The notes beneath the pieces were generated by a model. The model ran no database searches and was not told where the DNA came from. It was given only the letters and a program-made list of their open reading frames with translations. From Chthoniobacterales bacterium (GTDB taxonomy: Bacteria > Verrucomicrobiota > Verrucomicrobiia > Chthoniobacterales > JACTMZ01), in assembly GCA_021463515.1 (NCBI GenBank), contig JAJTYZ010000093.1, forward strand, positions 1 to 43,397: a stretch of DNA of 43,397 nucleotides, written 5' to 3'. Positions 16,508 through 35,502 of this stretch are shown here, piece after piece (the first letter of the stretch is position 1; each line of letters starts with the position of its first letter). Made by a program: the position numbers and the translations under genes.

Positions 16508-18175
16508 ATGAGCGAGAAGGCGACAGATGGTTTGGAGGCTCTGGAAAACCGCCTCATCAAGGCGATTGGAGAACGTGTACTAAGTCTGCCTTCATCCTTC
16601 GGGCCTGATAACGATCTTTACGAAGCGGGATTGGATTCGATGGCGATCATGCAGTTATTGCTCATGGTGGAAGAGGAGTTCGGCGTTACTATTCCCGTAG
16701 AATCTGTCTCACGCGAAAACCTCGCGAGTGCCCGTGCCCTAGCGACAATGCTCCGTAAAAGGCAGGTGAAGCCACCCGCGCCCAAAGAAATAACGACCTC
16801 ATCATCCTCTCTCGCATCACCGCCACCTCCCAAATTTCAAAACCTTCCCATGCAAGGTTCGGATTACTTTGTTCTAGGTTTCGACCGGCTCTTGCACAAA
16901 ACAGGGCAAGGCGGACATAAAGCACATTCCTTCCTCTTGCTCGAAAAACTTCCCGATGTGAGTCGGCTAAAGAAAGCACTTTCGCAATGCGGCAGACTGT
17001 ATCCCATGCTCAATGCCCAGTTGAAACGTCGTTGGCTGTTCAGCATCCCCTACTGGACCCCCGCGTCACAACCAGAGCCTCCGGATATATTTTTTTATAG
17101 TCAGGAAGGGTCTTCCAAAATTTTGAAATCCTCCGGTGCCACCGTCTTCAGCGATGCCCATGCACTGATGGAAAACATCACTAATTCTCCTATGCCGAAA
17201 AGTGGAAAAACTTCTTGGCCCAAAGTGCGTTTCAGCCTCTTGGAAATGAAAGACGGCAGTGCTGTTTTTATTTTTTCATGGAGTCACCTCATCCTCGACG
17301 GTGTGGGGGCGGAATTGTTTATTCAGGAACTTGTAAAATTAGAGGCAGCGCAAGAAGCAACGTCACCGTATATCCAATCCTCCGTCAATCGGCACTCCGG
17401 CAACCTCGCCAATGCGTGGCGCAAGGCGTATCCGATGGCCGACTTTTTTAGCAAGTTATCGCGAACTCCCATTACGAGCCTAGGGCCAGTGCGGCCAACG
17501 TCCGGCGTGACGCATTTTCTCATCCATGAACTTTCGGAGAAACAAACAAAGGTCGTCAACGCACGCTGTGCCGCCCTCTGCGGCGATTTGGTCAGTATGC
17601 CTTTTTTCCTTGCTTGCGCCATGCGTGCTCATGAATCCGTCTTTGCTCGACGTGGCACATCACCTGCCTCACAGACCTGCGGCGTCCCTACGCAAACTCG
17701 GAAAAAAGGCGAACACGGCCCACTTTTTCTGAACCATATTGCGATGTTTTTCGGAACGCTCAAGCGTGAAGACGCTGTTTCACTCGAACGCGCAACGGCG
17801 GTGCTCATGACGCAACATGCCACATTCCTCAAAAATCGCATGGGAGAATCTCTCGACGAACTCATGCACCTCATGAGTTTCATTCCCCCAAGCCTGTACA
17901 TGTCATTCATGAAATGGCAGATGCGCGGGCCATTTTCCTCGTTCTTTCATTCGCACACCGGAGAGTTCGCTGCGGGTTTGAATAGCTTCTATGGAGTAAA
18001 CATCCAAAATGCCTTTCACGTTCCGGGCATCGGGACGCCCCCGGGAACAGGGATTTTTTGTAACGAGAAAAATGGACGCATAGTTGTCACACTTTGCTGG
18101 CATGAAGCCGCTTTAACGGAACCCGAACGACAGCTTCTGCTCGATAGTTTTCTATCGGATCTGGGCGTGGCATGA
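16508..18175 (+). CDS. Acyl carrier protein fused to a condensation/acyltransferase-like domain
   Basis: Residues 1-85 form an ACP with the phosphopantetheine Ser in GLDSM (S44). After a Pro/Ser-rich linker (residues about 92-115), residues 120-555 look like the chloramphenicol-acetyltransferase/condensation superfamily: the HxxxDG motif is intact as HLILDG (H260, D264, G265). Members include peptide-synthetase condensation domains and alcohol O-acyltransferases, which transfer an acyl group from a thioester to an alcohol or amine. With the ACP attached in cis, the protein probably carries and then transfers the cluster's own acyl chain. GAAAGG lies just upstream of ATG 16508. First gene of a four-gene rightward block; its stop overlaps the next start (ATGA). 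Confidence 0.72.
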   Translation: MSEKATDGLEALENRLIKAIGERVLSLPSSFGPDNDLYEAGLDSMAIMQLLLMVEEEFGVTIPVESVSRENLASARALATMLRKRQVKPPAPKEITTSSSSLASPPPPKFQNLPMQGSDYFVLGFDRLLHKTGQGGHKAHSFLLLEKLPDVSRLKKALSQCGRLYPMLNAQLKRRWLFSIPYWTPASQPEPPDIFFYSQEGSSKILKSSGATVFSDAHALMENITNSPMPKSGKTSWPKVRFSLLEMKDGSAVFIFSWSHLILDGVGAELFIQELVKLEAAQEATSPYIQSSVNRHSGNLANAWRKAYPMADFFSKLSRTPITSLGPVRPTSGVTHFLIHELSEKQTKVVNARCAALCGDLVSMPFFLACAMRAHESVFARRGTSPASQTCGVPTQTRKKGEHGPLFLNHIAMFFGTLKREDAVSLERATAVLMTQHATFLKNRMGESLDELMHLMSFIPPSLYMSFMKWQMRGPFSSFFHSHTGEFAAGLNSFYGVNIQNAFHVPGIGTPPGTGIFCNEKNGRIVVTLCWHEAALTEPERQLLLDSFLSDLGVA

Positions 18176-19449
18176 CAAAATTCGATGTTATTGTAGCTGG
18201 TGGGGGAAGCGCAGGCATTGCGTCCGCCGTGAGTGCCGCCAAAATCGGAGCGCATACCTTACTCGTGGAACGTAATGAAATGCTGGGCGGCATGGGAACG
18301 TCAGCTCTTGTGCATACCATATGCGGGCTCTTCGCCTTTCGTGAAGACAAGCAGCATATCTGGGCAAATAATGGGTTTGCTCGCACATTCGCCACCCGAT
18401 TACTCGACACAGGAGGAGCGCAGCCACCACGCCACATGGGGCGCATGGTCGTGATGCCCCACAATCCTGTAGCGTTCGCATCTCTCGCTGATGCCATGAT
18501 GGAAGAGACGCCTCATCTGGAAGTCTGGATGGGAGCGGAGATCGTCGCTGCACACCCTCAGTTGGAGGAGGTGGATATTATTTGCCGCGGCGTCCGAAAT
18601 ACTGTCTCGGCCTCGACCTATGTGGATGCAACGGGCGATGCAACATTAACGATGTTGGCTGGAGGAGATTTCTCCATGAGCGAATCAAAAAGCCTCCAGC
18701 GCCCCGCTTACATCGTCGGGATGCGCGGATTTCCCACATCATTTTTTGAAGACGACCACAAACTGCAACTGGCCTACAGGCTCGTCGCAGCCGTGAACGC
18801 CGGACATCTTCCACGGGAGGTTCTGGGAGCGGGATTTCGTCAGGGCCTCGTAAGCGATGAAGCGTTCCTCACCCTGGATCTCGCTGCAGAAAAATCTGAC
18901 AGCACTTGGGATCCTACATCAGCTCGCTGTCTGGCCGATGTGGTAAGTCAAGGGCGAAGAGTGGCGACTATGATGACACATTACCTGCGTAAAAACTTGG
19001 AGGGTTGCGAAAATTGTCGCATTACACATTGGCCATCCCGAGCCGGCATTCGAGAGAGTCGCCGTGCGTGCGGCTTTCATGAACTGACCAAACAGGAAAT
19101 CCTGAACGGAGTTTCATTTAACGATGCCATTGCCAATATAGGATGGCCTCTCGAACTTCGTGAAAAAGCCACCGGTGCCCAATGGCATTTCCCCGAGAGC
19201 GATTCTCCAGCACAGATTCCTTTGCGCTGTTTGCGGCATCGTGACATCAGGAAACTCTGGATTGCAGGACGCTGCCTTTCCTGCACTCACGAAGCCCAAG
19301 CATCCATTCGCGTGATGGGAACGTGCATGGCCACGGGAGAAGCGGCAGGACTGGCTGCGGCCATTGATGATGGACGCGGGGAAAATGATTGGAAACGCGT
19401 CGCCTCCAACATCAAGCAACATCGTGAAAAAATATGGAGTCACCCATGA
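18172..19449 (+). CDS. FAD-dependent oxidoreductase (FAD_oxidored type)
   Basis: About 425 residues. The Rossmann motif VAGGGSAGIASAVSAA starts at residue 8, followed by VERNEMLGGMGTSA, typical of the FAD_oxidored (PF12831-like) group. The C-terminal FAD-binding segment IRVMGTCMATGEAAGLAAAI is also intact. Such enzymes often oxidise or desaturate small substrates; the reaction here is unknown. It lacks the WxWxI halogenase motif of three other flavoproteins in this cluster, so it belongs to a different branch. It overlaps both neighbours by ATGA, which implies coordinated translation with the ACP fusion and the AMP ligase. Confidence 0.8.
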   Translation: MTKFDVIVAGGGSAGIASAVSAAKIGAHTLLVERNEMLGGMGTSALVHTICGLFAFREDKQHIWANNGFARTFATRLLDTGGAQPPRHMGRMVVMPHNPVAFASLADAMMEETPHLEVWMGAEIVAAHPQLEEVDIICRGVRNTVSASTYVDATGDATLTMLAGGDFSMSESKSLQRPAYIVGMRGFPTSFFEDDHKLQLAYRLVAAVNAGHLPREVLGAGFRQGLVSDEAFLTLDLAAEKSDSTWDPTSARCLADVVSQGRRVATMMTHYLRKNLEGCENCRITHWPSRAGIRESRRACGFHELTKQEILNGVSFNDAIANIGWPLELREKATGAQWHFPESDSPAQIPLRCLRHRDIRKLWIAGRCLSCTHEAQASIRVMGTCMATGEAAGLAAAIDDGRGENDWKRVASNIKQHREKIWSHP

Positions 19450-20882
19450 ATATCGTCGAAGAAGTTTTTTGCCATGCGGATCCGAAAGCTACCGCACTCA
19501 TCGCCGGAGAGCGTCAGCTGACATTCGGTCAACTCGAACAATTAACAAATGCAGCCTCCCAAGTACTAAAGAATGTCGCAGGGAAACGGGTGGGATTAAA
19601 TTGTCCCAATGGCGTAGATCACATTGTATGGTCTCTGGCGATCCTTCGAAGCCATGCCGTTCTCCTGCCAATAGCACCCGAGCTCAGCCTCATCGAACGT
19701 GAGGAACAAATGAGAACAACGGCTACCGACATCGTGTTATGTGCAGGAGGTCGCCATTGGCATCGGGAAGCACCTGTTAGACACTCTCTCCACGTGGACG
19801 GCTTACAATCGTCCGAAATTTTATACGGACTCTGCACAGAACCGAGCCTGTTTGACGATGAGGTATTGCGCCGGATAAATCCGGCACTCATCCGCTTTAG
19901 CTCGGGAACAACCGGAGCGCGTAAAGGTGTCGTTCTATCACACGAAACCCTTTTAGAACGCGTCCTAGCTAGCAACACGCATCTGGGATTGGGAGTCGGT
20001 GATCGCGTTATCTGGGTTCTCCCCATGTCACATCATTTTGCCGTATCCATTATCCTGTATTTACGGCACGGTGTAACCACCATTCTGGGAGATTCTCACT
20101 TGGGGCAGGATATTTTTAACCTTCTGAAAGAACATAAAGGAACAGCCCTTTACATGTCGCCGTTCCATTACGCATTGCTTGCTTCCTGTGAAAGTGCTCA
20201 TCCCGTGCCGGATTTACGACTTGCGGTTTCCACTGCGGCTGCACTGCCGACCGAAACCAGCCGGCGTTTCCATGAGCGTTTTAACATCCCCTTGCGTCAA
20301 GCCTTGGGCATTATCGAATGTGGACTTCCGCTTCTCAATGACCAATGGCCCGTAAACAAACCAACTTCTGTGGGGCGCCCGCAAAGAGGATACGACGTTT
20401 CTTTACGATGTGAGCGGGGAGAACCAGTTCCCACCGGTCATGTTGGGGAGCTTTTTATTCGAGGACCGGGATTGGTGGATGCTTACCTCTCACCGTGGAT
20501 GCATCGAGAACAAATCCTGCAAGATGGATGGTTTCGCACGGGAGATATGGCCAAGCAGGATGAGGAAGGTGCACTTTTTTTGACGGGACGCACCCATGCT
20601 GTCATCAACGTGGGCGGCATGAAATGTTTTCCCGAGGAAGTAGAAACCATACTCTGCTCTCATCCATCCGTAAAAGAAGCACGCGTCAGTGCTATCAGCC
20701 ATCCGACCTTTGGAAACGTTCCAATTGCAGAAATTGTACTAGCTGAAGGCATCACCGAATCTCCCAAGCCCTCCGAGTTGATGAGCTGGTGCCGCATACG
20801 TCTCTCGAGTTATAAGCTTCCTGTTAAAATTTCCTTCGTATCTGCCATTCCTAAAACAGCGAGTGGAAAAATTAAAAGGTGA
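19446..20882 (+). CDS. AMP-dependent acyl/aryl-CoA or ACP ligase
   Basis: About 478 residues. Adenylation motifs are intact: FSSGTTGARKG at about residue 151 (A3), GWFRTGD (A7), LTGRTHAVINVGG with KCFPEEVE (A8-A9) and PKTASGKIKR at the very end (A10, catalytic Lys). It activates a carboxylic acid as an adenylate and loads it on CoA or the ACP phosphopantetheine. In aryl polyene and related clusters the equivalent ligase activates an aromatic starter acid, so that is the likely role; the acid cannot be read from sequence. The ATG at 19446 overlaps the previous stop; an ATG four codons earlier is possible. Confidence 0.85.
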   Translation: MNIVEEVFCHADPKATALIAGERQLTFGQLEQLTNAASQVLKNVAGKRVGLNCPNGVDHIVWSLAILRSHAVLLPIAPELSLIEREEQMRTTATDIVLCAGGRHWHREAPVRHSLHVDGLQSSEILYGLCTEPSLFDDEVLRRINPALIRFSSGTTGARKGVVLSHETLLERVLASNTHLGLGVGDRVIWVLPMSHHFAVSIILYLRHGVTTILGDSHLGQDIFNLLKEHKGTALYMSPFHYALLASCESAHPVPDLRLAVSTAAALPTETSRRFHERFNIPLRQALGIIECGLPLLNDQWPVNKPTSVGRPQRGYDVSLRCERGEPVPTGHVGELFIRGPGLVDAYLSPWMHREQILQDGWFRTGDMAKQDEEGALFLTGRTHAVINVGGMKCFPEEVETILCSHPSVKEARVSAISHPTFGNVPIAEIVLAEGITESPKPSELMSWCRIRLSSYKLPVKISFVSAIPKTASGKIKR

Positions 20883-20888
20883 TCCTCT

Positions 20889-22196
20889 ATGAGTCGTTTG
20901 CACCCCACAAACTCCGTCATGAAAGTCGCGATCGTTGGTGCCGGCCCTGCAGGCTCTACCCTTGGTGCTTTCCTTGCCCGCAAAGGCATTTCTACGGTGA
21001 TGTTCGATGACGGAGCACGTCCGCCTCTCATAGTTGGCGAGTCACTGGTGCCGCAAATGATTCCCGTTTTTCGCCGGCTCGGTATTGAAGATCAGGTGGC
21101 GGCTCTCGGTGTCTATAAGCCAGGCGTGATGTTCACGTTTAGCGAAAAGGACACATTGCTCCTCAGTTTCACGGCCGCTCGCGGAGTTTTGCCGACTTAC
21201 GCTTACAATGTGCCGCGCAAAGAGTTCGACAGTTTGATTCTTAATACTGCCATCACTTCGGGCCTACGCTATATCGAAACGGCAGCCAAAATCGAAGTGG
21301 ACAAAAGCGCAACACACGGAGAATCCCGCATGAAACTGTCGCCGGAGACGCTTGCACAAATACCGGAATGGAATGGAAAGCAGCCTGATTTGTTGATTGA
21401 TGCCAGTGGCCGACGACGGTTGTTCGCCAAAGCACTCGACATCAAAGCAGCTGTGGGGCGACGCAAAGACATTTCGCATTTCGCCCACTTCGAGGATTGC
21501 CCATGGCCGGAGCCTCCGGGGACCGTCATGATTATTCGCTTGGCCCACGGCTGGGCTTGGCGCATCCCGCTGCCCGATTCCAAACTCTCGATGGGCGTCG
21601 TACTCAACAAGGAAATTGCCAAAAAATTCGGGGCTACTCCGGAGGAACAATTGGAGAACCTCATTGAAAGCGAGCCCCATCTTGGAAAAGCCTGCCCAAA
21701 TCGTCGCCGAGTTTCGCCCGTGGCCACCTTTGCCAATTACCAGCTGATTTCAGAATGTGGCTCCGGTAAAAATTGGGCGATGGTGGGCGACGCCTTTGGC
21801 TTTGTGGATCCCATGCTCTCCCCGGGTCTGTGCATGGCGATGGTCTCTGCAGAAAAATTAGCCGCAACTATTCCTGCCACCACGAAAACACTCGCCCACA
21901 TACCGGCAAAACTCACCAAGTATTGGCATTGGTATCGCGAAACTCTCGGAGCATGGCAACATCTTGTGGACCACTTTTACGACGGACGAATTTTCGCAAT
22001 ACAACGCAGCGGAATGGATATGTCGCAACGTTACCCCGGCCTCATCAGCAATGTCATGGAACGCCATATCGGAAAAAATCTGAGCGGCATGGCCGCAGGT
22101 GCCTTTATCAACCGACCCTATAGCCGTTGGCTTTTACACATGTTGAGCCAATATGGAATCCGTGGGCATAAACCCGAAGACTTCGCCATCCAATGA
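20889..22196 (+). CDS. Flavin-dependent halogenase-like monooxygenase A
   Basis: About 435 residues. FAD site GAGPAGS near residues 17-23 and IVGESLVPQM, then K77 in the segment VYKPGVMFTF, aligned with the catalytic Lys of flavin halogenases (K79 in PrnA). GWAWRIP (residues 221-227) matches the WxWxIP motif that blocks monooxygenase chemistry in FAD halogenases, and GDAFGFVDPMLSPG is the second FAD motif. Typical members use FADH2, O2 and chloride or bromide to halogenate an aromatic ring, often on a carrier protein. Not every protein with this motif halogenates. A Shine-Dalgarno-like AGGTGA lies eight bases before ATG 20889. It ends nine bases before the convergent LPG-synthase-like gene. 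Confidence 0.75.
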   Translation: MSRLHPTNSVMKVAIVGAGPAGSTLGAFLARKGISTVMFDDGARPPLIVGESLVPQMIPVFRRLGIEDQVAALGVYKPGVMFTFSEKDTLLLSFTAARGVLPTYAYNVPRKEFDSLILNTAITSGLRYIETAAKIEVDKSATHGESRMKLSPETLAQIPEWNGKQPDLLIDASGRRRLFAKALDIKAAVGRRKDISHFAHFEDCPWPEPPGTVMIIRLAHGWAWRIPLPDSKLSMGVVLNKEIAKKFGATPEEQLENLIESEPHLGKACPNRRRVSPVATFANYQLISECGSGKNWAMVGDAFGFVDPMLSPGLCMAMVSAEKLAATIPATTKTLAHIPAKLTKYWHWYRETLGAWQHLVDHFYDGRIFAIQRSGMDMSQRYPGLISNVMERHIGKNLSGMAAGAFINRPYSRWLLHMLSQYGIRGHKPEDFAIQ

Positions 22197-22205
22197 ATCT
22201 GCCTC

Positions 22206-23252
22206 CTAAGGCATCTCAACTATCGCCTGACTCTTTGTTTGAGATAGAGATTCTTCCGCCTTTTCAACCCGACGAGGAAGAGTAAATGGAAGCAACAATC
22301 CGCCCACCAGCGCCACAGCCGCTTGAAGCCCGAAGCCGGTCAACGACGCTATAGTTGCCGCCGCACCGGACACTCCAAAAAGGCTACCCATGAGATGCTG
22401 CAGCAATGTCTCGCGAAGACCGACTCCGTAAAAGGTAATCGGCAGCATAATGAGCGCATCCACGATCGGCATAATTGCAAAAATGCCGCTTAATGAGACA
22501 GGAAGCTCAAACGCCCGCGCACTAAAAAAATACGTGGCGAAATGTACAGCGAAAGCAATGCAGGAAACCGCAATCGCCAATAGGATTTCACGGGGATGTT
22601 CCAAAATTTCCCAGAAGCCATCTCCCACCGCCAACAATCGCGCACGCAGCTTCGGTGGCATTCTGTGTGCTCCTATTTGACGGATCATGGGAAATGTTGT
22701 GAGCCACCATAGGAAAATGACAATCACTGGCCCACTTAAAATGAAGGTACTGACTTTCAAAATACTTCGAGACGAAACATCCAACGGAAGTGTATCGGAG
22801 CGAATAAGCGTGATTCCTAAGGCAATCACTAGTGCAACCATTCCGCACAATCTGTCGGCGATAACCGAAGCAACAACTTGAATTTTTTTCCCGGGATGAA
22901 GTCGAATCACATAAAGAATCCGAAAAATATCTCCCCCACCTGCCCCCGGCAGAATGAAAGAATAAAATAACCCCGCGAGCGTAAAGACGCATGTTCGCGT
23001 CATGCTCACCGGCACCTTGAAAACCCGCAACATCAACCACCAGCGGACAGCACAAAGCAATTCGGTAATCAAGGCACTCAGCAACCCAACGCCAAGCCAT
23101 CGCCCATCAGCAACCCAAAGGAGCCGCTGAATTTCTTCCCGAAGAGCCGCATCACCAAAGATGCGCGACAGGAAAATGAATGAAAGAGCGATCTGCAACA
23201 TCGTGAGCCAATGCCTGCGTCCCCATCCCAAAAAGTTTGTAAAAAAGTGCAT
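22206..23252 (-). CDS. Lysylphosphatidylglycerol synthase TM-region protein (UPF0104, AglD/MprF N-domain type)
   Basis: About 348 residues and about eight hydrophobic helices. The segment SFILPGAGGGDIFRILYVIR fits the signature region of the LPG_synthase_TM family, a family of flippase-like or glycosyl-lipid associated membrane proteins found with glycolipid synthesis genes. It lacks the cytosolic lysyl-transferase domain of true MprF. A role in moving or presenting a lipid-linked product of the cluster is inference. The start at 23252 (MHFFTNFLG) is preferred: the upstream in-frame part runs back through the divergent gene's 5' end and looks non-coding. It is divergent from the flavoprotein at 23290 and shares a short regulatory gap. 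Confidence 0.75.
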   Translation of the reverse strand: MHFFTNFLGWGRRHWLTMLQIALSFIFLSRIFGDAALREEIQRLLWVADGRWLGVGLLSALITELLCAVRWWLMLRVFKVPVSMTRTCVFTLAGLFYSFILPGAGGGDIFRILYVIRLHPGKKIQVVASVIADRLCGMVALVIALGITLIRSDTLPLDVSSRSILKVSTFILSGPVIVIFLWWLTTFPMIRQIGAHRMPPKLRARLLAVGDGFWEILEHPREILLAIAVSCIAFAVHFATYFFSARAFELPVSLSGIFAIMPIVDALIMLPITFYGVGLRETLLQHLMGSLFGVSGAAATIASLTGFGLQAAVALVGGLLLPFTLPRRVEKAEESLSQTKSQAIVEMP

Positions 23253-23289: not shown

Positions 23290-24852
23290 ATGAATAAATC
23301 GCCGAGACACTGCGAGTGTGATATCGCTGTGATCGGTGGAGCTTTAAGCGGAGCTGCGACCGCCCTAATGCTCAAACAACGTGATCCTTCCCTCAAGGTC
23401 ATTGTGATCGAAAAGGAAGTCGCCTTTAAGCGCCGAGTTGGAGAAGCCACGGTGGAAGTTGCCGCCTACTTTTTTTGTCGTGTGCTGGGGCTCACTCAAT
23501 TCTTGACCCAAACTCAGCTGGCAAAAAATGGCCTTCGTTTCTGGTTTTCCAACGAAGCTTGTAAGAGTGTTGGCGACTGTTCTGAAATCGGTGGGAAGTA
23601 CCTCTCAACCGTTCCTTCATTCCTCGTGGATCGCGCGGTCATGGACGAAGAAGTACTCCTTCGTGCCATTGAAATCGGCGTCGAAGTGTGGCGTCCGGCA
23701 TCGGTATCGTCGGTACAACTGACACCCGGAAACTGGCAACAATTACAGGTAGACCACGCCGGAGAGGACGTCTCCCTACGGGCACGCTGGGTCGTGGATG
23801 CCTCCGGGATCAAGTGCATGTTGTCGAGAACCAATGGTTGGTGGCAGCGTTTCGAAGAACACCCCACCCTCTCCGCATGGTCACGCTGGCGTAACGTTGA
23901 AGATTGGGATGCCAAGAAACTTACAGACCTTCATCCGGAATTAGGGCGTGACTATGTGGGCATTCGCGGAACGGCAACCAACCATTTAGTCGGCGACGGA
24001 TGGTGGGCTTGGTGGATTCAGCTAAAAGGCGGCGACACCAGCATTGGTGTCGTCGTTGATCCTCGCAAAACAGAATGGCCCTCGGGCAATGATTCCATTG
24101 GAGAAAAACTCCGCACATTTCTTTCGCGTCACGCCGCAGCGAAAGAGATGCTGCGTGATGCTGAGTTTGTTTCGGGCGATGTCCACTACCGACGTAACAT
24201 GCCCTACCGTTCGACGGTTTTTGCGGGTGATGGTTTCGTACTGGTCGGTGATGCCGCCGCGTTCCTTGATCCATTCTACAGCCCAGGTATGGATTGGATC
24301 GCCTTTTCCTCCTCGGCCGCCGTGCGAACCATCATGACATGGCGTAAAAATAAAGACCTAACTTCCGTTTTGAAGGCGCATAATCGCGACTTTACGAAAA
24401 GCTTTCGCTGTATGTTCGAGGGGCTTTACGAGGATAAATATGACTATCTCGGAGACTATGAATTGATGCGAGTTGCCTTCCATCTCGATCTCGCATTCTA
24501 TTACCTCTTCGTGGCTCGCCCCATTTTTGCAGAAGGCCCGGAGCTTCTTGTCTTCCCGCCCTATTCCGTCAAAGAAGCCGCCCCAATCCTTGCCGTCATG
24601 CGGCTTTACAATCGTCGTTTAGCAGCGATGGGACGCCATCGCCGCAAGCGCGGGTGTTTCGGGCGGCACAACAACGGACATCGCGACTTATTTTCGGGAT
24701 TAAATTTCAAGGTGACTCACCTGCTAAAAATTATCTCCTCGGGATTGATCTTGTGGACATGCCTAGAAATAACTGAGGGCTGGAAATCATGGCTCCATCG
24801 TAAGCGTCCTTCTCCGAATTCACCGGACGATGGTGAAAAAGCAATCGGCTAA
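23290..24852 (+). CDS. Flavin-dependent halogenase-like protein B
   Basis: About 520 residues. FAD motif VIGGALSGAATALML near residue 14 (Gly pattern altered from GxGxxG to GGALSG), RVGEATVE, K79 in the segment LAKNGLRFWF at the same offset as the catalytic Lys of PrnA-type halogenases, WAWWIQL (residues 239-245) in place of WxWxIP, and GDAAAFLDPFYSPGMDW. The Pro of WxWxIP is Gln here. It is larger than its two relatives in this cluster; the C-terminal 130 residues (after about 390) are of unknown function. The last residues converge on the ketosynthase-like gene with a seven-base gap. Halogenation or hydroxylation of an aromatic ring are both possible. Confidence 0.68.
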   Translation: MNKSPRHCECDIAVIGGALSGAATALMLKQRDPSLKVIVIEKEVAFKRRVGEATVEVAAYFFCRVLGLTQFLTQTQLAKNGLRFWFSNEACKSVGDCSEIGGKYLSTVPSFLVDRAVMDEEVLLRAIEIGVEVWRPASVSSVQLTPGNWQQLQVDHAGEDVSLRARWVVDASGIKCMLSRTNGWWQRFEEHPTLSAWSRWRNVEDWDAKKLTDLHPELGRDYVGIRGTATNHLVGDGWWAWWIQLKGGDTSIGVVVDPRKTEWPSGNDSIGEKLRTFLSRHAAAKEMLRDAEFVSGDVHYRRNMPYRSTVFAGDGFVLVGDAAAFLDPFYSPGMDWIAFSSSAAVRTIMTWRKNKDLTSVLKAHNRDFTKSFRCMFEGLYEDKYDYLGDYELMRVAFHLDLAFYYLFVARPIFAEGPELLVFPPYSVKEAAPILAVMRLYNRRLAAMGRHRRKRGCFGRHNNGHRDLFSGLNFKVTHLLKIISSGLILWTCLEITEGWKSWLHRKRPSPNSPDDGEKAIG

Positions 24853-28140: not shown

Positions 28141-28144
28141 AAGC

Positions 28145-31100
28145 CTAGACACGTTTATTACCTCGGACAACAGGCGCGGCGTCAACCGGTGAGAACTGAA
28201 ACCATTGCTCCGGCCATTTGATAAAAATAGGCACTAAACTGGCAGCAATCTTTTCAGTATAATGCCGCAGCGTTTCCTCACGACCTTCAGGCAGCCAAGT
28301 TGGTTCAATATAATCACAGGCATCCATCCGGTAAGTTCCATGAGGATCGCGGAGGATCGCTACAGGGATGATCGGGCATCCAGCTAGGAGTGCCAGCAAT
28401 ACCGAACCCGTGGCAAATTTCATACCCCCATGAGGCAACGCAATATCAACGCTGTTGTCGTCATAAGGACGATCCGCAAGAGATGCCACTAAGGTTCCTT
28501 CCTGCAAGGCTCGCACCGCATCGAGAAAGGCGAATGTTTCTTGCCCAATCACAATCGTACGCACTCCCCATCGTGCGCGAAAATCCGCACGCCATTCGGT
28601 AAGACCATCCCCGGGTTCCGGCAGTGTGAGAGCTGCCATCGTAAATCCCATTTGCGCCAACACCAATCCGCCCAACTCAAAAAATCCCAAGTGCCCTGTC
28701 ACCAACACGCACCCGCGTCCTTCCTTCCTTGCTCGCTCCAAATACTCAAAGCCCCTCGCCTCACCAATCATCTGCAACACCGCTTGCGGCTCTTCACGCG
28801 CCAAGCGACCATACGAGGAAAAGTTTTCTCCTTGATTGATAAAAAGCCGACACGCTGCTGCGTAAGTTGCTTTTTGCGGATCAAGCATGGCCATGTTACG
28901 CCGCACCGTCCGAACAGTTGCAAAGTGGGTCAAGGCATAACCTAGCCCGAAAGTACGGGAGATCAGCCACGCCCCTGTTTTCCCAAGCAGCCTCCATCCA
29001 AATAAAATGAGCTCAAAACTTCGACGACGATACAAGACGCGGTAAAATTTTCGCTGACGATAATCCTTACCCACACCCCAAAGATAAAGCACGGGCAGAA
29101 ACAAAAGACATGCGACAACGGCGGAAATAATACCAATATCCATGACTAAACCGAAATTGGTGAGAGCGGGTTGGCCAGTCAAAGCCGGAACACCAAATCC
29201 GATACAACCGCTCAACCCCGTCAGCACCACCGGCGCTGCTAAATACCTATAGGTTTTATGCAAATCCCCACGTTGTTCTTCCAACGTCATCAAAATATGC
29301 AGGCTGTAATCAATCACAAGCCCCACGAGCAACGGGATACTGATGAGCGATAAAGGTGTGAGCGACAAACCCACGATTCGAAGAAGGCCAATAAACAGAC
29401 AAAGTGCCAACACCAACGCCGTGAGATTCAGCAACACCATGCGCCACGATCGTTGCGCCACGGTACAGAGCACGATGATCGCGATGAGCATGGCAATGCC
29501 CAGATATTCAAAATCATGCTGTGCAAGTTCCATCAGTTCCTTGGTGAGCGACACCCAACTGACCGGATAGACTTCTACGTCGGGCGCAATGCCCGCAAGG
29601 CCTCCGGCGGGGATCGGATGATTCGCCGCGTGTGGAACTCGCAAAAATGCAAACTTTCCGCGTTCATCGGAACCCGCTAACGCACGCAAAATAGAATTCA
29701 CTTGGGAAAATGCGTCGGCGTCTCCCCGCTTGGTAGCATCCAATACCCGCGCTAATTGCAAGGTGATCTCCGACCAATCTTCCCCAACTCCCGCACGCTC
29801 GAAGGCCTCTTGTAAACGAGCAGAGGTATTTTCCGACCATGAAGACAAGTTGGCTGCAACATTCGATTCGCTCGGAACGAGCCATGCCGCACTTCCTTTT
29901 TGTCCCGGACGAACCGCCTGTTCGAGCGGAACCACCGCTGCGCGAATGGCATCATGCGTGGCACCACGAAGGACATAAATGGCGTCGCCACTCGACGGAT
30001 CAAGCTGACCCAACCATTCCTGCGCACGAAAAGCCATACTACCAATCGGACGCATATCCTCTAAACTCGGGCTATAAAGCGGCTTGGTGTAGGTCCACGG
30101 ACGACTCAAAATCAAGGTCACGGCGAGTGCCACGGCAATTCCTGTGAGGAGTCCCTTATGGCGCATCACCCAAGAAGCCGTTCCGTTGCTTGCAATCGAA
30201 AGGACACGCGGCGCACGGGGTGGATAATCTCTTAGTACCGCCCGCAGCAACCACGTAGCCATGAGTGCCGTACTTAGAAGACCAACGCCCACAAGCACTG
30301 CGAGCTGACGCAGAGCCGGGAAGGAGGAAAATCCCAGCATAAAAAAAGAACTAGCCGTTACTAATGCACTGAACCAAATCCCGCGCCGCAAAGTGTACCA
30401 GACGGCGGCGTTATTTCGATCAGATGATGCGTAGTAATGATAAACCAAGACACTGTAATCCATGCCTACACCAAGCAAAATGGAAGCGAAGCCGATGCTG
30501 ATGACATTGAGTTCTCCATAAAGAATTCGCGCCGCAACAATGCCGCAAAGCATGGCCAGAATTTGAAAAAATAAAATCCATCCCAAAGGGCGCCACGTGC
30601 GATAAAAAGCGTAAAATGACGCGATCAGCAAAATAAGAGCCGCTCCCACCATAATCCCCACATCCCGCTGCATCTGCCGCGATATCTCCGCGTTGAAAAC
30701 AGGATTTCCCGTGAGAAGAACTTTGCCACGCTCGTGCTCACTGAAAGCTTGATCCAAAGCAGAACGCAACACCTCGGTCATCGCCGTATCCTGCGCGGTA
30801 TTCTCCAGATAATGATCCGGCGTGATGATGAGGAATCCGGCGTCCATTCCCATCGAGCCGAATGCAGATTGATCGCCCCTTTCTCCGCCCAGACTTTCCA
30901 ACACTCCCAAAGGATCAAATTGCATTTGCACGATTTGTGCAGGATCAATGGCACCCGCTAAGCGCTCCGGAATTTCCTCGAGTCTCTTCGCCATCACATC
31001 GGGCGAAAATGCACCTGTCGCTCGTGCAAAAATTTCGGGCGGCGAATTGAGTAGAATCCATGCACCAAGAGCCCCTGCGTAATTTTCTGCAATTTCTCCC

Positions 31101-31411
31101 GGCGCAACAACTCGCTCGACACCTGGGGCGGCGGAGAGTGCCGTTCGTGCGGTGGCAAGCAATTCCTGACGCTCTGTGCCCTGCACCATCGGATCAACGA
31201 CGGCATAAATTTCATCTTTGCCTGCAGCACCCAGCGCAAAATCTGTGAGCCCTTGTACACTCGGTAATGACGCCGGAAGAATGGGAAGAAATTCCGTCCC
31301 AAAACGAATCGTCAATATAGCCCATAGCCCACTCCCGATAACGACGGCGAGAAATGCGGCATAAATTGGTGCGCGGAAGAAAACCATAGTCGGCAATCTG
31401 CAAAGGAGCAC
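28145..31411 (-). CDS. MMPL/RND exporter fused to LpxL/HtrB-type lysophospholipid acyltransferase
   Basis: About 1088 residues. Residues 10-760 show two RND-like halves, each with a transmembrane helix, a large periplasmic loop and a group of five helices (SISFASILLGVGMDYSVL and SLISIPLLVGLVIDYSLHILM), as in MMPL polyketide/lipid exporters. Residues about 790-1080 are a separate LPLAT domain: GHLGFFE gives H907 and E912 of the Hx4E/D motif, followed by SLADRPYDDNSV and RDPHGTYR. MMPL proteins of about 780 residues and LpxL-type enzymes of about 300 are usually separate, so this fusion couples acylation and export in one polypeptide. Start is GTG at 31411, adjacent to the flavoprotein stop. 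Confidence 0.8.
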   Translation of the reverse strand: MLLCRLPTMVFFRAPIYAAFLAVVIGSGLWAILTIRFGTEFLPILPASLPSVQGLTDFALGAAGKDEIYAVVDPMVQGTERQELLATARTALSAAPGVERVVAPGEIAENYAGALGAWILLNSPPEIFARATGAFSPDVMAKRLEEIPERLAGAIDPAQIVQMQFDPLGVLESLGGERGDQSAFGSMGMDAGFLIITPDHYLENTAQDTAMTEVLRSALDQAFSEHERGKVLLTGNPVFNAEISRQMQRDVGIMVGAALILLIASFYAFYRTWRPLGWILFFQILAMLCGIVAARILYGELNVISIGFASILLGVGMDYSVLVYHYYASSDRNNAAVWYTLRRGIWFSALVTASSFFMLGFSSFPALRQLAVLVGVGLLSTALMATWLLRAVLRDYPPRAPRVLSIASNGTASWVMRHKGLLTGIAVALAVTLILSRPWTYTKPLYSPSLEDMRPIGSMAFRAQEWLGQLDPSSGDAIYVLRGATHDAIRAAVVPLEQAVRPGQKGSAAWLVPSESNVAANLSSWSENTSARLQEAFERAGVGEDWSEITLQLARVLDATKRGDADAFSQVNSILRALAGSDERGKFAFLRVPHAANHPIPAGGLAGIAPDVEVYPVSWVSLTKELMELAQHDFEYLGIAMLIAIIVLCTVAQRSWRMVLLNLTALVLALCLFIGLLRIVGLSLTPLSLISIPLLVGLVIDYSLHILMTLEEQRGDLHKTYRYLAAPVVLTGLSGCIGFGVPALTGQPALTNFGLVMDIGIISAVVACLLFLPVLYLWGVGKDYRQRKFYRVLYRRRSFELILFGWRLLGKTGAWLISRTFGLGYALTHFATVRTVRRNMAMLDPQKATYAAACRLFINQGENFSSYGRLAREEPQAVLQMIGEARGFEYLERARKEGRGCVLVTGHLGFFELGGLVLAQMGFTMAALTLPEPGDGLTEWRADFRARWGVRTIVIGQETFAFLDAVRALQEGTLVASLADRPYDDNSVDIALPHGGMKFATGSVLLALLAGCPIIPVAILRDPHGTYRMDACDYIEPTWLPEGREETLRHYTEKIAASLVPIFIKWPEQWFQFSPVDAAPVVRGNKRV

Positions 31412-32677
31412 TTAACGCAAGGATGGAATTGAAGGCGCGACAGGCAGAATGCGCTGAATGCGACAAATGATGAGAAACATAACGAGGCGAAGCCGATCGA
31501 AAAACCTTAGATCGGTATCTCCTCCCACAAGTCGTCCGATGCTTGAAGGAATATTCAAAAATGCTGCGGGATTCATAAAAACTTCAAAGCCTGCCCGATC
31601 ATAAAACATGTCCACAATCTGTACGTATTGTTCCATCCATCGCGTAACTTCACGCGTGTAAGCTCGGCGTTCCCAAAAGCTCAATCCACGCCCTGCCGCA
31701 TTTGCCTTAATGATCATTTGAGCCGCCTTCATGCCCGATTTGAGCGCAAGGAGCACTCCCGAGGAAAACACCGGGTCCACAAAACCCGCAGCATCACCCG
31801 TGAGAATAATCCGACGTTTTGCAAACGATGAAAATTTCCAGCTGTAATCCCCCGTTGCACGCAAGGGCGTCACCTCCGTTGCCCGACACATCCGTTCCGC
31901 AACATCCGGCGCGGCCTGTACAGACGCTGCAAAAACCTCATTCAATTTCGCGCCATTTCCCACGCAGTCCGACGGCAACACCAAGCCAACCGATGTGCGC
32001 CCTCCTGACAAAGGGATAAACCAAAACCACCGATCGGACGAACGTACGATGGTGACATGCCCAGCGGCTTTCCCGGAATTCCGAAATACGCCGTCGAAGT
32101 GCCCGTAGATGGCCACACGGCGTTTCCTTTGGGTCGGACTTCGGCGCAATCCAACACGCGAACCGGTGAAAGCACAGCGGCCACTGGCATCAATCACCCA
32201 ACGCACATGCAAATCACCCCTGCCTTCCACTCTTTCGTAAAAAACCGTCATGGCTTCGGAATCTGGATTCTCCAAATTCAAAACCCGAGTTTGTTCATGC
32301 ACTTCACATCCACACTCACGCGCATGATCCAGTAGTAATTTGTCAAACGTCGCACGTTCTACTTGGTAAGTATGTTCACGGTCCGCATCGAATTTGTTCT
32401 TAAACCAAAACCGCTGCATTCGCGTTTTATCCCCTGTGACAAATTCCGCGCCGTATTTTCGAAGAAATCCCGCCTGATCAATTTTATCCAACACGCCCAA
32501 CTCGCGCAGGATGCCATTGCCTTGCGGCAGCAGGGATTCACCAATGCAAAATCGCGGAAACTTTTCTTTCTCCAAAATTACCACCCGCAAGCCGGCCCGT
32601 GCCAACTCCGTGCCTGCAGCTACGCCGGAGGGGCCTCCTCCAATAATGGCAACGTCAGCTGTCGAGCTTACTTTCAT
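31412..32677 (-). CDS. Flavin-dependent halogenase-like protein C
   Basis: About 421 residues. FAD motif VAIIGGGPSGVAAG near residue 9, FCIGESLLPQ, K74 in FLRKYGAEF (catalytic Lys position), WFWFIP (217-222, a full WxWxIP) and GDAAGFVDPVFSSG. This is the closest of the three cluster flavoproteins to the phenolic/carrier-bound halogenase pattern, but related geranylgeranyl-reductase-like enzymes share the overall fold. The start at 32677 (MKVSSTADV) is preferred; ATG 32689 or TTG 32704 are possible. The gene overlaps the end of the ACP gene by 23 bases. Confidence 0.75.
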   Translation of the reverse strand: MKVSSTADVAIIGGGPSGVAAGTELARAGLRVVILEKEKFPRFCIGESLLPQGNGILRELGVLDKIDQAGFLRKYGAEFVTGDKTRMQRFWFKNKFDADREHTYQVERATFDKLLLDHARECGCEVHEQTRVLNLENPDSEAMTVFYERVEGRGDLHVRWVIDASGRCAFTGSRVGLRRSPTQRKRRVAIYGHFDGVFRNSGKAAGHVTIVRSSDRWFWFIPLSGGRTSVGLVLPSDCVGNGAKLNEVFAASVQAAPDVAERMCRATEVTPLRATGDYSWKFSSFAKRRIILTGDAAGFVDPVFSSGVLLALKSGMKAAQMIIKANAAGRGLSFWERRAYTREVTRWMEQYVQIVDMFYDRAGFEVFMNPAAFLNIPSSIGRLVGGDTDLRFFDRLRLVMFLIICRIQRILPVAPSIPSLR

Positions 32678-32954
32678 GCACCCGTGCATCACCTCGAGCC
32701 ACAATTTTTCTCTCCAAATAGTCTTTCAACACCCCCAAACTCTGCAGCGCATCCTTTGCGGAAGCAGGATCACCGATGACCACTTTGTATTCCCGTTCTA
32801 CGGCAATCACCATCTGCAACGCATCCAAGGAATCCAACCCAAGGCTGTCGGGCCCGAAAAGCGGCGTGTCTTCAAGAATCGTCTCCGGTGCGAGTTTAAC
32901 CATACAGTTTTCGACGAGCATTGCTTTGAGGCGAGCGATAGTAACCTGTTCCAT
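32655..32954 (-). CDS. Acyl carrier protein
   Basis: About 99 residues, a usual ACP length with a short C-terminal tail. The phosphopantetheine attachment Ser is S42 in LGLDSLDALQ, and the flanking helices (MVIAVEREYKVVI) fit the acidic ACP helix II/III pattern. A Shine-Dalgarno AGGAG lies about ten bases upstream of the ATG. The cluster thus has two ACPs, this free one and the fused one at 16508. A 54-base gap precedes it after the deacetylase, the largest inside the operon; a promoter there is possible but not visible. Confidence 0.9.
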   Translation of the reverse strand: MEQVTIARLKAMLVENCMVKLAPETILEDTPLFGPDSLGLDSLDALQMVIAVEREYKVVIGDPASAKDALQSLGVLKDYLERKIVARGDARVHESKLDS

Positions 32955-33008: not shown

Positions 33009-33782
33009 TCACAATTCCGGAATTATCGTGCGCAACTGACATTGCTCGAAGCCCATCAATAACTTTTCCAAAGTCTTCGCCCGTTGCCCTACGGGCATCC
33101 CGAGCAGTCGATTTTCATGCAAAAGAATAATGTCACCCGATTGCACCCTTCGAAGAATACGTCGCAGCACACGATTCGGATCATGAGAAATTCCATCATG
33201 TCCGCCTACGGACCAGCCTACCATGCGGAGTTTCATGCACGTGGCCACTTCATGAACAAAAGCATTCGCTAAGCCCGCAGGTGCCCGAAACAAAGTGGGA
33301 ATGCGGCCCGTTACCGCTCGAAGCACTTCCGAGCCACGCCACATTTCTTCACGAACACGGCGTGGTGTCGCAGCCCAAAAGCTGAATGCAGGATGTGAGA
33401 ATGTGTGATTTTGCACATCATGCCCCGCCTCTATCATCGCTCGCACCAACTCCGGTCTCTCCACCACGCGCTGCCCAATACAAAAGAACGTGGCGCGTGC
33501 TTGAAATGCGTGCAACACATCTAAAATTCTCGGCGTTTCTTCCGCATCAGGCCCATCATCGAGGGTGAGCCAAACCTCTTTTTTTGAAGTCGTAAAAGTC
33601 TTTATTACCGGCCCCCACCATGACGCATTGCGTGTGAGTGTCGGAATAAGAAATGCCGCAGCGGATACCATGCTCCACCGCTGTGCCTCTCGCCCTTCCC
33701 GTCGCGCCAACTTCATCATCGAAACAGCCGTAAAGAAAGCGGAGACACCCAAACCCAGCCGGCGGCGCATCGCAGGTTTCAC
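33009..33782 (-). CDS. Polysaccharide deacetylase (NodB homology domain)
   Basis: About 257 residues. After an N-terminal hydrophobic segment (LGVSAFFTAVSMM), residues 70-250 hold the NodB fold: TLDDGPD (D75, D76), NHTFSHP with H126 and H130 as metal ligands, FRAPAG and IILLHE with the late His. These enzymes remove acetyl groups from N-acetyl sugars or related glycans using a divalent metal. In polyene-pigment clusters homologues are present but their substrate is not settled. The start is GTG at 33782, overlapping the stop of the GT2 gene (GTGA). Confidence 0.85.
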   Translation of the reverse strand: MKPAMRRRLGLGVSAFFTAVSMMKLARREGREAQRWSMVSAAAFLIPTLTRNASWWGPVIKTFTTSKKEVWLTLDDGPDAEETPRILDVLHAFQARATFFCIGQRVVERPELVRAMIEAGHDVQNHTFSHPAFSFWAATPRRVREEMWRGSEVLRAVTGRIPTLFRAPAGLANAFVHEVATCMKLRMVGWSVGGHDGISHDPNRVLRRILRRVQSGDIILLHENRLLGMPVGQRAKTLEKLLMGFEQCQLRTIIPEL

Positions 33783-34558
33783 AGCGCATTTTCCTCCAGT
33801 CGCCCCCTGCGGCGATAGCGGTAAAGGGACGGAAAAAGTATTAAGGATCGAAGAAAAAGGCGAACGTGTACCAATGCCAGCAGAAGATTATCTCGTACGT
33901 ACCGAAAATGGCTCACACCCCCCACTTCTCGCTCGAGATAATGTACGGGCGTTTGCAAATTCAACGGTGGCACCCCTGCCCAATAAAGTCTTACGGCCAA
34001 CTGCGTGTCGAAATCAAAACGTCGCCCGCCGCGCATTTGTCGAAGGATGCGCAGCGAAGGTTCGATTGGATAAACGCGAAAACCAAACAACGAGTCATCA
34101 ATACCGCCCCACCACGTTTCGAGATTAGTCCACCAATTACCAACACGCCGACCTTTCACCCGCAACGACGGTGCATCAGCACCGAAAATTGGTACGCCGA
34201 GAATCATGGCTTCGGGATGTTTGCGGGATGCCGCCATAAAGCGCGGTATTTCGGAAGCCACATGTTGCCCATCCGCATCGAATACCGCAGCGTGAGTCAT
34301 TCCCAACGTCGCCGCATGTTCTAGTGCCGTCAGCACAGCGGCACCCTTTCCCAGATTGAGTGGATGAACCAACACATAAAGGCCGCTCCATTCGTTCGCT
34401 AACTCATGTGCATATTGAGCACTTCCATCGGTCGAGCCATCGAGGACAACAATCACTGGCTCCCAAATTTTCAGCAAAGAGCGCAGCGTTTCTTCTAAGA
34501 GACGTCCCGAATTGTAGCTCGGAACAATGACGCACTGTCCGTGACTTTCCTTGCTCAT
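33779..34558 (-). CDS. Family 2 glycosyltransferase
   Basis: About 259 residues. The GT-A fold is evident: IVPSYNSGRLLEETL, VIVVLDGSTDGSAQ, GKGAAVLTAL and the metal-binding FDADGQH. The pattern is like dolichyl-phosphate mannose synthase and related inverting transferases that use an activated sugar and a lipid or lipid-phosphate acceptor at the inner membrane. In aryl-polyene and flexirubin clusters a similar enzyme is present, with an unclear acceptor. It overlaps both neighbours by four bases. Confidence 0.85.
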   Translation of the reverse strand: MSKESHGQCVIVPSYNSGRLLEETLRSLLKIWEPVIVVLDGSTDGSAQYAHELANEWSGLYVLVHPLNLGKGAAVLTALEHAATLGMTHAAVFDADGQHVASEIPRFMAASRKHPEAMILGVPIFGADAPSLRVKGRRVGNWWTNLETWWGGIDDSLFGFRVYPIEPSLRILRQMRGGRRFDFDTQLAVRLYWAGVPPLNLQTPVHYLEREVGGVSHFRYVRDNLLLALVHVRLFLRSLILFPSLYRYRRRGRLEENAL

Positions 34559-35502
34559 GCTGTTCGACGAATAATGCTATGACCATCGCTCATTAATTGA
34601 CTGCTAAAATAATTCTCAATTTCCGCCGAAAGTGTACGTGGGTTATCATCGGGTGATGTCGGAAACACGCGTGCCGCAGTTAGGTGAAATGACATGGGGC
34701 AGCAAGCGGGGCGAAAGAACGAAAAATTCCTACCAAAATAAAGGGAATCACATTCGATAAAAATTGTACGAATGGGTGCGCCGGCCTTGATGGCGGCCAA
34801 GGCAAAGCCCTGATGAAAAGGGCCGAGAGGTGGCGTCAAGGTTCTCGTTGCCTCCGGAAAAATCAAAATATTTGATCCTGCCGTCAAACGATTCTGGCAG
34901 CTTCGAAGCATCCTCACCGGAGCACTGTTGCAAACATAATCGCACAGCTTTGCAGCTCCTCCCATCACCGGATCACGCAATAATTTCGAGTTCATGACGC
35001 AATCCAATTCAGGAACTCGCGAGATCAAAGCCACCGCGTCCATGAGGGAAGGATGATTTGGAGCCAGAACATTTCCACGCCAATGCTGGCAGTCTTCAAA
35101 TCCATGAAACGTGACTTCAAGCATGTTCCATTGACGCAGCAACATGAGATAGCGCGAAAATCGGCGTTGTAAGCCGCGTCGTTCTTTTATTGCATCGGGA
35201 GAGCTTTTTGTAAGCGCACGTCGGCTCATCCAACGTGTCGTGAGCCAAAGTCCGGAGGCAATAAAGTACAAATGAGCAGCTGCCTGTATCATGGCACCGC
35301 GTCCGCGAGGTCTGCTCGTATCCAATCCCGTGACAACTCCATCTTGTTGCTTGGTGGTAAGCGTGGGGGGAAAGTTCATAACCACGGGCACATCAACGGA
35401 AGCCTGCCACGGATTACGACGGGAGCCAAGTTCACGATTTGTGCCGTGAATCTTGACAGTTTCCTCAACAGATCCGACGGAAGTCGGCAAGGTTCTCTTC
35501 AT
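34555..35502 (-). CDS. PlsC-type 1-acyl-glycerol-3-phosphate acyltransferase-like protein
   Basis: About 315 residues. The acyltransferase motifs are NHPSLMD (Hx4D: H150, D155) and FPEATR (residues 215-220), where family members usually have FPEGTR, so the Gly is Ala. A helix AHLYFIASGLWL lies near residue 77. Such enzymes transfer acyl chains from acyl-ACP or acyl-CoA to glycerol-phosphate lipids. The first 70 residues are not conserved and a later start is possible. It is the first gene of the leftward operon, and thus likely provides or modifies the lipid anchor of the product. Confidence 0.75.
   Translation of the reverse strand: MKRTLPTSVGSVEETVKIHGTNRELGSRRNPWQASVDVPVVMNFPPTLTTKQQDGVVTGLDTSRPRGRGAMIQAAAHLYFIASGLWLTTRWMSRRALTKSSPDAIKERRGLQRRFSRYLMLLRQWNMLEVTFHGFEDCQHWRGNVLAPNHPSLMDAVALISRVPELDCVMNSKLLRDPVMGGAAKLCDYVCNSAPVRMLRSCQNRLTAGSNILIFPEATRTLTPPLGPFHQGFALAAIKAGAPIRTIFIECDSLYFGRNFSFFRPACCPMSFHLTAARVFPTSPDDNPRTLSAEIENYFSSQLMSDGHSIIRRTA

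What the first reader, a model, noticed from the sequence alone, without database searches (positions are those of the whole stretch)
16508..35502. Aryl-polyene/xanthomonadin-like cluster with an unusual enzyme set
The cluster has AMP ligase, two ACPs, a FabF-like KS with a KS-like partner, a FabZ-like dehydratase, LolA-like carrier, MMPL exporter, GT2, deacetylase and lipid acyltransferases, the set known from aryl polyene, flexirubin and xanthomonadin clusters. Missing from the window are a ketoreductase, a thioesterase and an ammonia lyase or chorismatase for the starter acid. It adds three halogenase-like flavoproteins, a fourth flavoenzyme and an LPG-synthase-type membrane protein. A ketoreductase borrowed from fatty-acid synthesis, or a product with retained keto groups, is possible. 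The product could be a halogenated polyene or resorcinol lipid; this is inference.
Basis: partly seen in the sequence, partly recalled or inferred. Interest (0 to 1): 0.78.

Follow-up and report, generated by a model that had tools for sequence, protein, structure and literature searches.

The report
Halogenase-rich polyene-type lipid gene cluster
A verrucomicrobial genome carries a conserved gene cluster that resembles those for yellow polyene pigments, but it has no ketone-reducing enzyme and its usual starter-loading enzyme seems to be replaced by a halogenation-type module; what it makes is unknown.

Summary
The gene set is real. The window is one whole contig and the cluster lies inside it, so the missing genes are not beside it. 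Corrections: the first ACP is the N-terminus of an ACP-acyltransferase (condensation-type fold, weak model); the FabZ-like ORF is the C-terminal half of a gene broken in frame; the exporter is fused to an LpxL-like acyltransferase; an antiporter extends the cluster to 15181.

In Chthoniobacterales, 26 of 213 genomes carry the close KS partner. An SDR profile that finds E. coli ApeQ finds no SDR in 24 of 25 such regions. Thirteen of these genomes show only a phenylalanine-gated FabG as best match; FabG could not replace ApeQ in Acinetobacter (PMC8041823). Ammonia lyase is in 1 of 13 such genomes, UbiC in none of 18 searched. An ApeH-scoring ligase is absent here and in 19 of 21 such regions; a ligase-carrier-flavoenzyme-halogenase-condensation module is present in most and also occurs without the polyketide core.

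Best reading: a variant aryl-polyene-type lipid pathway, ketoreduction in trans, with a carrier-bound acyl module. Product, halogenation and aryl nature are not shown.

The parts
15181..16446 (+). CPA2-type Na+/H+ antiporter, probably part of the cluster
   Evidence: PF00999 2e-52; 47-73% homologues in 7 of 28 related regions; arcuflavin cluster has antiporter arcG (PMC3949708, table passage)
16508..18175 (+). ACP (aa 17-81) fused to a condensation-type acyltransferase domain (aa ~96-555), HxxxD motif
   Evidence: PF00550; H and D invariant in 7 aligned sequences; fold search of a low-confidence model; relatives with separate ACP and AT genes
18172..19449 (+). PF12831 FAD-dependent oxidoreductase, substrate unknown
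   Evidence: only short N-terminal matches in the PDB
19434..20882 (+). AMP-forming acyl ligase of module i, not ApeH-like
   Evidence: no hit to E. coli ApeH at E 0.01
20889..22196 (+). halogenase-like flavoprotein Hal1 (GWAWRIP, FVDPMLSPG, KPG)
22206..23252 (-). LPG_synthase_TM / flippase-like membrane protein (ORF runs to 23450; start at 23252 is inferred)
   Evidence: whole ORF; piece 22209-23102
23290..24852 (+). halogenase-like flavoprotein Hal2 (WWAWWIQ, FLDPFYSPG)
24860..25846 (-). KS-like partner (chain-length-factor-like, N-terminal KS domain only)
25843..27060 (-). ketosynthase with Cys-His-His motifs
27057..27517 (-). FabZ-like dehydratase gene, broken in frame at the T run 27402-27409
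27514..28185 (-). LolA-like carrier (best NCBIfam model LolA2_flexi, 72 bits, below its cut-off of 125)
28145..31411 (-). MMPL exporter fused to LpxL-like acyltransferase
   Evidence: fused in G053 and G058 as 1057 aa
31412..32704 (-). halogenase-like flavoprotein Hal3 (RKYG, WFWFIP, FVDPVFSSG)
32655..32954 (-). acyl carrier protein ACP2 (DSLD), ApeE-like
33009..33782 (-). polysaccharide deacetylase (NodB/PdaB-like)
33779..34558 (-). GT2, like the N-half of ApeJ (40%)
34555..35502 (-). PlsC-type acyltransferase, ApeD-like (34%)

Best explanation
It is a member of a Chthoniobacterales family of aryl-polyene-type type II polyketide lipid clusters. Shown by sequence: a KS with its half-length partner, an ACP, a FabZ-like dehydratase, and a GT2/acyltransferase/MMPL/LolA set like the one that in known clusters is thought to put a polyene acyl group on a lipid and move it to the outer membrane. 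Inferred: the chain is elongated by KS and partner on ACP2, the keto group is reduced by the cell's unlinked FabG, and the dehydratase makes the double bonds. Inferred: the classical ApeH ligase step is replaced or supplemented by module i (16508-22196), in which the AMP ligase loads an acid on the ACP domain, the PF12831 flavoenzyme and Hal1 oxidise or halogenate it while carrier-bound (Hal1 resembles CmlS and PltA), and the condensation-type domain transfers it, either as starter of the chain or as an ester on the finished lipid. The flippase-like protein and MMPL/LolA export the product.
For: Homology of KS, ACP2, GT2, LpxL part, PlsC and MMPL to E. coli Ape proteins. Shared gene set in the 25 window-type regions mapped, not each complete. 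No SDR in 24 of 25; the one in G091 lies 2.7 kb past the partner gene and stays under 60 bits against ApeQ. The SDR profile finds ApeQ at 4e-56; L130 and L140, also found, were among its seeds. Dehydratase motif kept in 7 of 9 relatives' ORFs, which implies a 3-hydroxyacyl substrate and so some ketoreduction. Over 35 regions (34 distinct) the module-i ligase is in 15, an ApeH-scoring ligase in 10 (9 distinct), both in one, neither in 11. Module-i acyltransferase in 37 and close KS partner in 26 of 213 genomes, 22 shared (lists; Fisher 2e-16; genomes are related, so the p-value is too good).
Against: A. baumannii FabG could not replace ApeQ in vitro (PMC8041823, abstract passage and section 9), and KR deletion in Lysobacter abolished pigment (PMC3691225, abstract passage). 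Module i occurs in 15 of 37 genomes without a close partner (10 of these have a more distant or partial partner, 5 none), so it may serve another product. Two window-type regions, G047 and G076, do have an ApeH-scoring ligase. The window KS is closer to its own genome's FabF (208 bits) than to ApeR (187) or ApeO (166); partner and dehydratase half match E. coli Ape weakly or not. The dehydratase ORF of this window is broken. No product is known; the condensation fold rests on a model of pLDDT 55.7, whose best match (AzeD) is labelled a dehydratase.
Confidence: 0.5

Rival explanations
1. Ordinary aryl polyene pathway with a dedicated but unlinked ketoreductase and an unlinked or external aryl starter.
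For: Linked KRs exist in Verrucomicrobiales relatives L130 and L140; the window's genome is 66% complete; many SDRs exist per genome.
Against: In the 16 genomes whose best match to the L130 KR I read (13 window-type), it is an APGF-type FabG at 37-41%. The own-genome SDR on C122 has close orthologues only in G050 (82%) and G018 (56%) of 19 other genomes searched. Ammonia lyase in 1 of 13 window-type genomes, UbiC in 0 of 18 with the E. coli control positive.
Confidence: 0.2
2. The chain is not a fully reduced and dehydrated polyene: without a KR in every round keto groups are retained or the chain stays short, giving a halogenated, possibly non-aryl polyketide lipid.
For: KR absent in nearly all regions; FabG failed in A. 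baumannii (PMC8041823); no aryl-starter enzyme found in most genomes searched; three halogenase-like proteins.
Against: A dehydratase with its motif is kept in 7 of 9 relatives' ORFs, pointless without hydroxyacyl groups; the export genes fit a polyene lipid.
Confidence: 0.2
3. Two pathways that sit together: module i makes its own acyl lipid, and the KS core makes another.
For: Module-i genes stand without KS in the fetched regions of G043, G049, G046, G071, G073, G048 and G019, with Hal2, LolA and MMPL also in G049, G046, G073 and G019; G071, G072 and G073 have no partner match at E 1e-20.
Against: 22 of 26 genomes with the close partner carry the module-i acyltransferase; where the module-i ligase is present, no ApeH-scoring ligase is seen in 14 of 15 regions. 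G049 has its close partner on another contig.
Confidence: 0.3
4. The cluster is inactive in this genome, because the dehydratase gene is broken.
For: Frame change in a T run.
Against: The other 15 genes of 16508-35502 and the antiporter are open reading frames; a homopolymer in a draft assembly is a likely place for an error (general knowledge).
Confidence: 0.1

Closest known systems
E. coli CFT073 aryl polyene cluster (apeA-R)
   Same: KS, ACP, PlsC-type AT, GT2, LpxL-type AT and MMPL by BLAST, LolA weakly (0.009), KS partner weakly and to ApeO; a FabZ-like dehydratase as a class only (PMC8253772 Table 1 passage)
   Different: No BLAST counterpart of ApeQ KR, ApeK thioesterase, ApeH ligase, ApeB, ApeG, ApeN, nor of ApeI/ApeP by the window's dehydratase half; GT2 and LpxL parts separate, LpxL fused to MMPL; halogenase-like and module-i genes added. 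ApeK deletion in E. coli costs only part of the pigment (PMC8253772 passage)
Arcuflavin/xanthomonadin clusters (Azoarcus, Xanthomonas, Lysobacter)
   Same: Partner with an N-terminal KS domain only, halogenase-like gene (not in Lysobacter), antiporter, deacetylase, LolA, exporter, AMP ligase (PMC3949708 table passage; PMC3691225 passages)
   Different: They have a KR; Azoarcus and Xanthomonas a XanB2-type chorismatase; sequences not compared here
Flexirubin clusters
   Same: LolA, exporter, deacetylase, GT, acyltransferase (PMC3992019 passages); LolA2_flexi is the best LolA model, below cut-off
   Different: Tyrosine ammonia-lyase, reductases FlxB/FlxV and DarA/DarB have no counterpart in this cluster
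C-1027 beta-tyrosine module (SgcC1-C5, recalled; SgcC5 ester formation cited in a PMC10051162 passage)
   Same: Works alike if the reading is right: ligase, free carrier, carrier-bound flavin halogenase, free condensation enzyme; SgcC5 is rank 46 of the fold hits
   Different: Only fold-level similarity tested, 13% sequence identity; no halogenation shown here

Membership tests
Aryl polyene cluster | KS plus KS-like partner | tested here: met
   partner only weakly similar to E. coli (ApeO 2.6e-5, no ApeC hit)
Aryl polyene cluster | dedicated ketoreductase | tested here: not met
   no SDR found in the window; none in 24 of 25 window-type regions
Aryl polyene cluster | FabZ/FabA-like dehydratase | tested here: met
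   gene broken in this window, no BLAST hit of its half to ApeI/ApeP
Aryl polyene cluster | ApeH-type aryl-acid:ACP ligase | tested here: not met
   window ligase has no ApeH hit; 2 of 21 window-type regions have one (G047, G076)
Aryl polyene cluster | source of the aryl starter (ammonia lyase, UbiC, XanB2) | tested here: inconclusive
   lyase 1 of 13 window-type genomes, UbiC 0 of 18; PF21168 0 of 18 but no control rang; own genome 66% complete
Aryl polyene cluster | lipid anchoring and export genes (GT2, ATs, LolA, MMPL) | tested here: met
   (LolA weakly)
Aryl polyene cluster | aryl-polyene product | not testable with these tools
   no culture
Flexirubin / dialkylresorcinol | DarA/DarB | tested here: not met
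   none among the Pfam-assigned genes of 15181-35502; the KS partner has a sub-cut-off ACP_syn_III match (21.8 bits); rest of the genome not searched
Flavin-dependent halogenase (Hal1, Hal2, Hal3) | WxWxIP motif (recalled) | tested here: met
   Hal1 14 of 14, Hal3 12 of 12; Hal2 WxWxI in 13 of 13 but P in 6 of 13, the window's Hal2 having Q
Flavin-dependent halogenase (Hal1, Hal2, Hal3) | halogenation activity | not testable with these tools
   121, 101 and 197 bits to the CmlS model, cut-off 900; non-halogenating flavoproteins of the same fold also match

The most novel reading that the evidence does not exclude
A KR-less type II polyketide pathway, conserved in an order of Verrucomicrobiota, in which a carrier-bound halogenated acid made by a ligase/flavoenzyme/halogenase/condensation module takes the place of the hydroxyaryl starter, giving a halogenated polyene or keto-polyene outer-membrane lipid of a kind not yet described.
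Probability: 0.3. Interest if true: 0.7.

Novelty: new variant of a known kind. Interest (0 to 1): 0.5.

Why it matters
[quoted passage not shown] In Lysobacter the ketoreductase is needed for pigment, and in A. baumannii FabG could not replace it. A family spread over an order that lacks a linked ketoreductase makes a direct test possible: can verrucomicrobial FabG serve a polyene synthase, or is the product different? The apparent exchange of the priming ligase for module i also offers a way to study how a starter unit is replaced in these pathways.

Tried and rejected
Missing genes just outside the window: rejected, the window is the whole contig and the cluster lies 15 kb and 8 kb from its ends. 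Own-genome SDR on C122 as a dedicated enzyme: not supported, close orthologues only in G050 and G018 of 19 other genomes. ApeQ-type Leu gate as a marker of a dedicated KR: 0 of the 16 FabG read; L130 has Tyr and L140 Phe at that place, so the marker is not general. The low-scoring partner class (84-209 bits, 116 of the 142 matching genomes) as the same cluster: not accepted; in one of them (L182) the neighbours are an LptD_N-like protein, UDP-glucose dehydrogenase and an rRNA methyltransferase; only this one was read by Pfam. Plasmid records as a source of annotated relatives: in the rows listed KS at most 37.6% identity; partner in 24 records, the rows listed at 23.8-30.3%. PF21168: no control rang, not used. 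Papers: nothing on a Chthoniobacterales or KR-less cluster of this kind was seen in the listings (open-access library only). An antiSMASH-predicted aryl polyene cluster in another verrucomicrobial isolate is in print (PMC9865893, passages). Passages only were read of PMC3949708, PMC3691225, PMC3992019, PMC8253772, PMC5826242, PMC9865893, PMC10051162, PMC12144888; of PMC8041823 passages and section 9.

The SDR seeds were mostly wrongly chosen ORFs; its SDR column was dropped and redone. LPGtm in my BLAST scans was a truncated piece (22206-23102), so its counts may be low. G040 (partial acyltransferase hit, 52 bits) was left out of the 37; G049's partner contig was not fetched, so 25 of 26 regions were examined, and for G193 the contig with the KS, not the one with the partner.
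Full report
What is there. The window is the whole of contig C134 of a 2.1-Mb, 66%-complete genome. Residues ~96-555 of the 16508 ORF have no Pfam or PDB sequence match. An AlphaFold model (pLDDT 55.7, pTM 0.58) gives 250 Foldseek matches at E <= 0.001; the 50 listed are NRPS condensation, cyclization or epimerization domains, BAHD and similar acyltransferases, wax ester synthase and PapA5, with AzeD, labelled a dehydratase, at rank 1. With H and D of HxxxD invariant in 7 aligned sequences this points to a condensation-type acyltransferase, but the model is weak.

The family. With the KS-partner alignment A1, 142 of 213 genomes of the order match at E <= 1e-20: 26 at 276 bits or more, the rest at 84-209 bits (G012 at 209 is partial). 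I treat the 26 as window-type. Regions of 25 of them were examined. They share, in varying order, PlsC, GT2, deacetylase, ACP2, Hal3, LpxL, dehydratase, LolA, MMPL, KS, partner, Hal2 and the flippase-like protein, plus module i (ACP, acyltransferase, PF12831 flavoenzyme, ligase, often Hal1). Not every region has all of them, and several are short contigs (G099 4.7 kb, G102 3.5 kb, G095 8.5 kb, G093 8.6 kb). The MMPL-LpxL fusion is also in G053 and G058.

Ketoreductase. A profile of own-genome SDRs plus the L130 and L140 enzymes finds nothing in the window and nothing in 24 of 25 window-type regions; G091 has an SDR 2.7 kb beyond the partner gene. The same profile gives ApeQ 4e-56. The absence is wider than the window type: no SDR in the five low-class regions fetched, and in 13 further named loci (the 19 less six that are the same contigs as G regions) an SDR is seen in four, next to the partner gene in two, L130 and L140. 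In 18 genomes searched with the L130 KR every one has SDRs. In the 16 whose best hit I read as FabG (13 window-type, 3 low-class) the gate residue is phenylalanine. Own genome: best hit on C122, valine there. G103: best hit 32%. PMC8041823 reports that A. baumannii FabG cannot replace ApeQ and links this to Leu185 versus Phe183; E. coli ApeQ has Leu there too. PMC3691225 reports loss of pigment on KR deletion. So 'FabG does it' needs a test, and retained keto groups stay open. The dehydratase motif, kept in 7 of 9 relatives' ORFs, favours some reduction.

Starter. PF00221 (aromatic ammonia lyase) is in 1 of 13 window-type genomes searched (G008) and 2 of 5 others (G071, G073) (controls ring in 5 of 14). 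PF04345 (UbiC) is in 0 of 18, E. coli ringing. PF21168 is in 0 of 18 but no control rang. The window ligase has no ApeH hit. Over 35 regions (34 distinct; G076 and L101 are one contig) the module-i ligase (358 bits or more) is in 15, a ligase of 47-67 bits to ApeH in 10, both in one (G047), neither in 11. Of the 21 window-type regions in that scan, 14 have the module-i ligase and 2 an ApeH-scoring one (G047, G076). This looks like an exchange of the priming ligase, though the regions are related by descent and differ in length.

Module i. Its acyltransferase domain is in 37 of 213 genomes, 22 of them among the 26 with the close partner (Fisher 2e-16, not corrected for relatedness). Of the 15 others, 10 have a more distant or partial partner match and 5 none. 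In G043, G049, G046, G071, G073, G048 and G019 module-i genes stand without KS in the fetched region, so they may have a product of their own; G049 has its close partner on another contig. The window's module-i genes resemble those of another family (G080: 61-68%) more than those of its own genus (G053, G058: 29-44%), while the KS is 65-66% to both: module i may have been exchanged as a unit (inference).

Halogenase-like proteins. The best solved matches are annotated halogenases, among them 8zop, CmlS, PltA, ChlB4 and 3e1t. Motifs: Hal1 14 of 14 for WxWxIP and FxxPxxSxG, Lys 13 of 14 by a strict pattern; Hal3 12 of 12, 11 of 12 and 12 of 12; Hal2 FxxPxxSxG 13 of 13, the P of WxWxIP 6 of 13, Lys 3 of 13 by the strict pattern. 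The meaning of these motifs is recalled. None reaches the CmlS cut-off.

Core motifs. All three KS motifs are seen in 11 of 15 KS rows; the other four are a second KS-like gene in G018, partial ORFs in G008 and G050, and G036, where the third differs. The partner has Cys at the KS-Cys place in 7 of 13 rows scored, otherwise other residues.

Comparison. The envelope part resembles that of E. coli ape: GT2 40% to the N-half and LpxL 25% to the C-half of ApeJ, PlsC 34% to ApeD, ACP2 to ApeE, MMPL 23% to ApeM, LolA weakly to ApeL; the partner matches only ApeO weakly, the dehydratase half not at all, and the KS is closer to its own FabF than to ApeO or ApeR. Antiporter, deacetylase, LolA, exporter and halogenase-like gene also appear in the arcuflavin table (PMC3949708). 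KR and ApeH-type ligase were tested and not met. I therefore say it works like an aryl polyene cluster and do not file it as a standard member.

Verdict. Real, conserved, and a new variant of a known kind. Product, halogenation and aryl nature are not shown. Interest 0.5.

Noticed in passing
L182 (G141:C9) 8262-15623, and the low-scoring class: A second, more distant KS/partner pair is widespread in the order and also found in Haloferula, Luteolibacter and Verrucomicrobium records; in L182 it sits beside an LptD_N-like protein and UDP-glucose dehydrogenase.
   Followed up: partly
L084 1-3396: A short contig binned as Bradyrhizobium encodes the closest KS (73%), partner (67%) and Hal2 (73%); probably a misbinned verrucomicrobial contig.
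   Followed up: no
window 13092-13163 and 13835-13908: tRNA-Lys and tRNA-Met genes lie just left of the cluster; no search for an integrase was made.
   Followed up: no
window 14064-15164: MGDG-synthase-like glycosyltransferase directly upstream of the antiporter, same strand; no homologue in the 28 related regions scanned.
   Followed up: partly
window 40876-43305: RHS/YD-repeat-like protein on the minus strand (by eye, no family search).
   Followed up: no
joined L074+L075 5285-6565 (G018): A second KS-like gene (29% to the window KS) near the window-type cluster; it lacks the three catalytic motifs in G018. Similar 29% KS-like hits stand in G007 and G017, motifs not checked there.
   Followed up: no
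L099 11045-13349: A methyltransferase and a radical SAM protein follow the KS and partner genes in a subdivision 6 relative.
   Followed up: no
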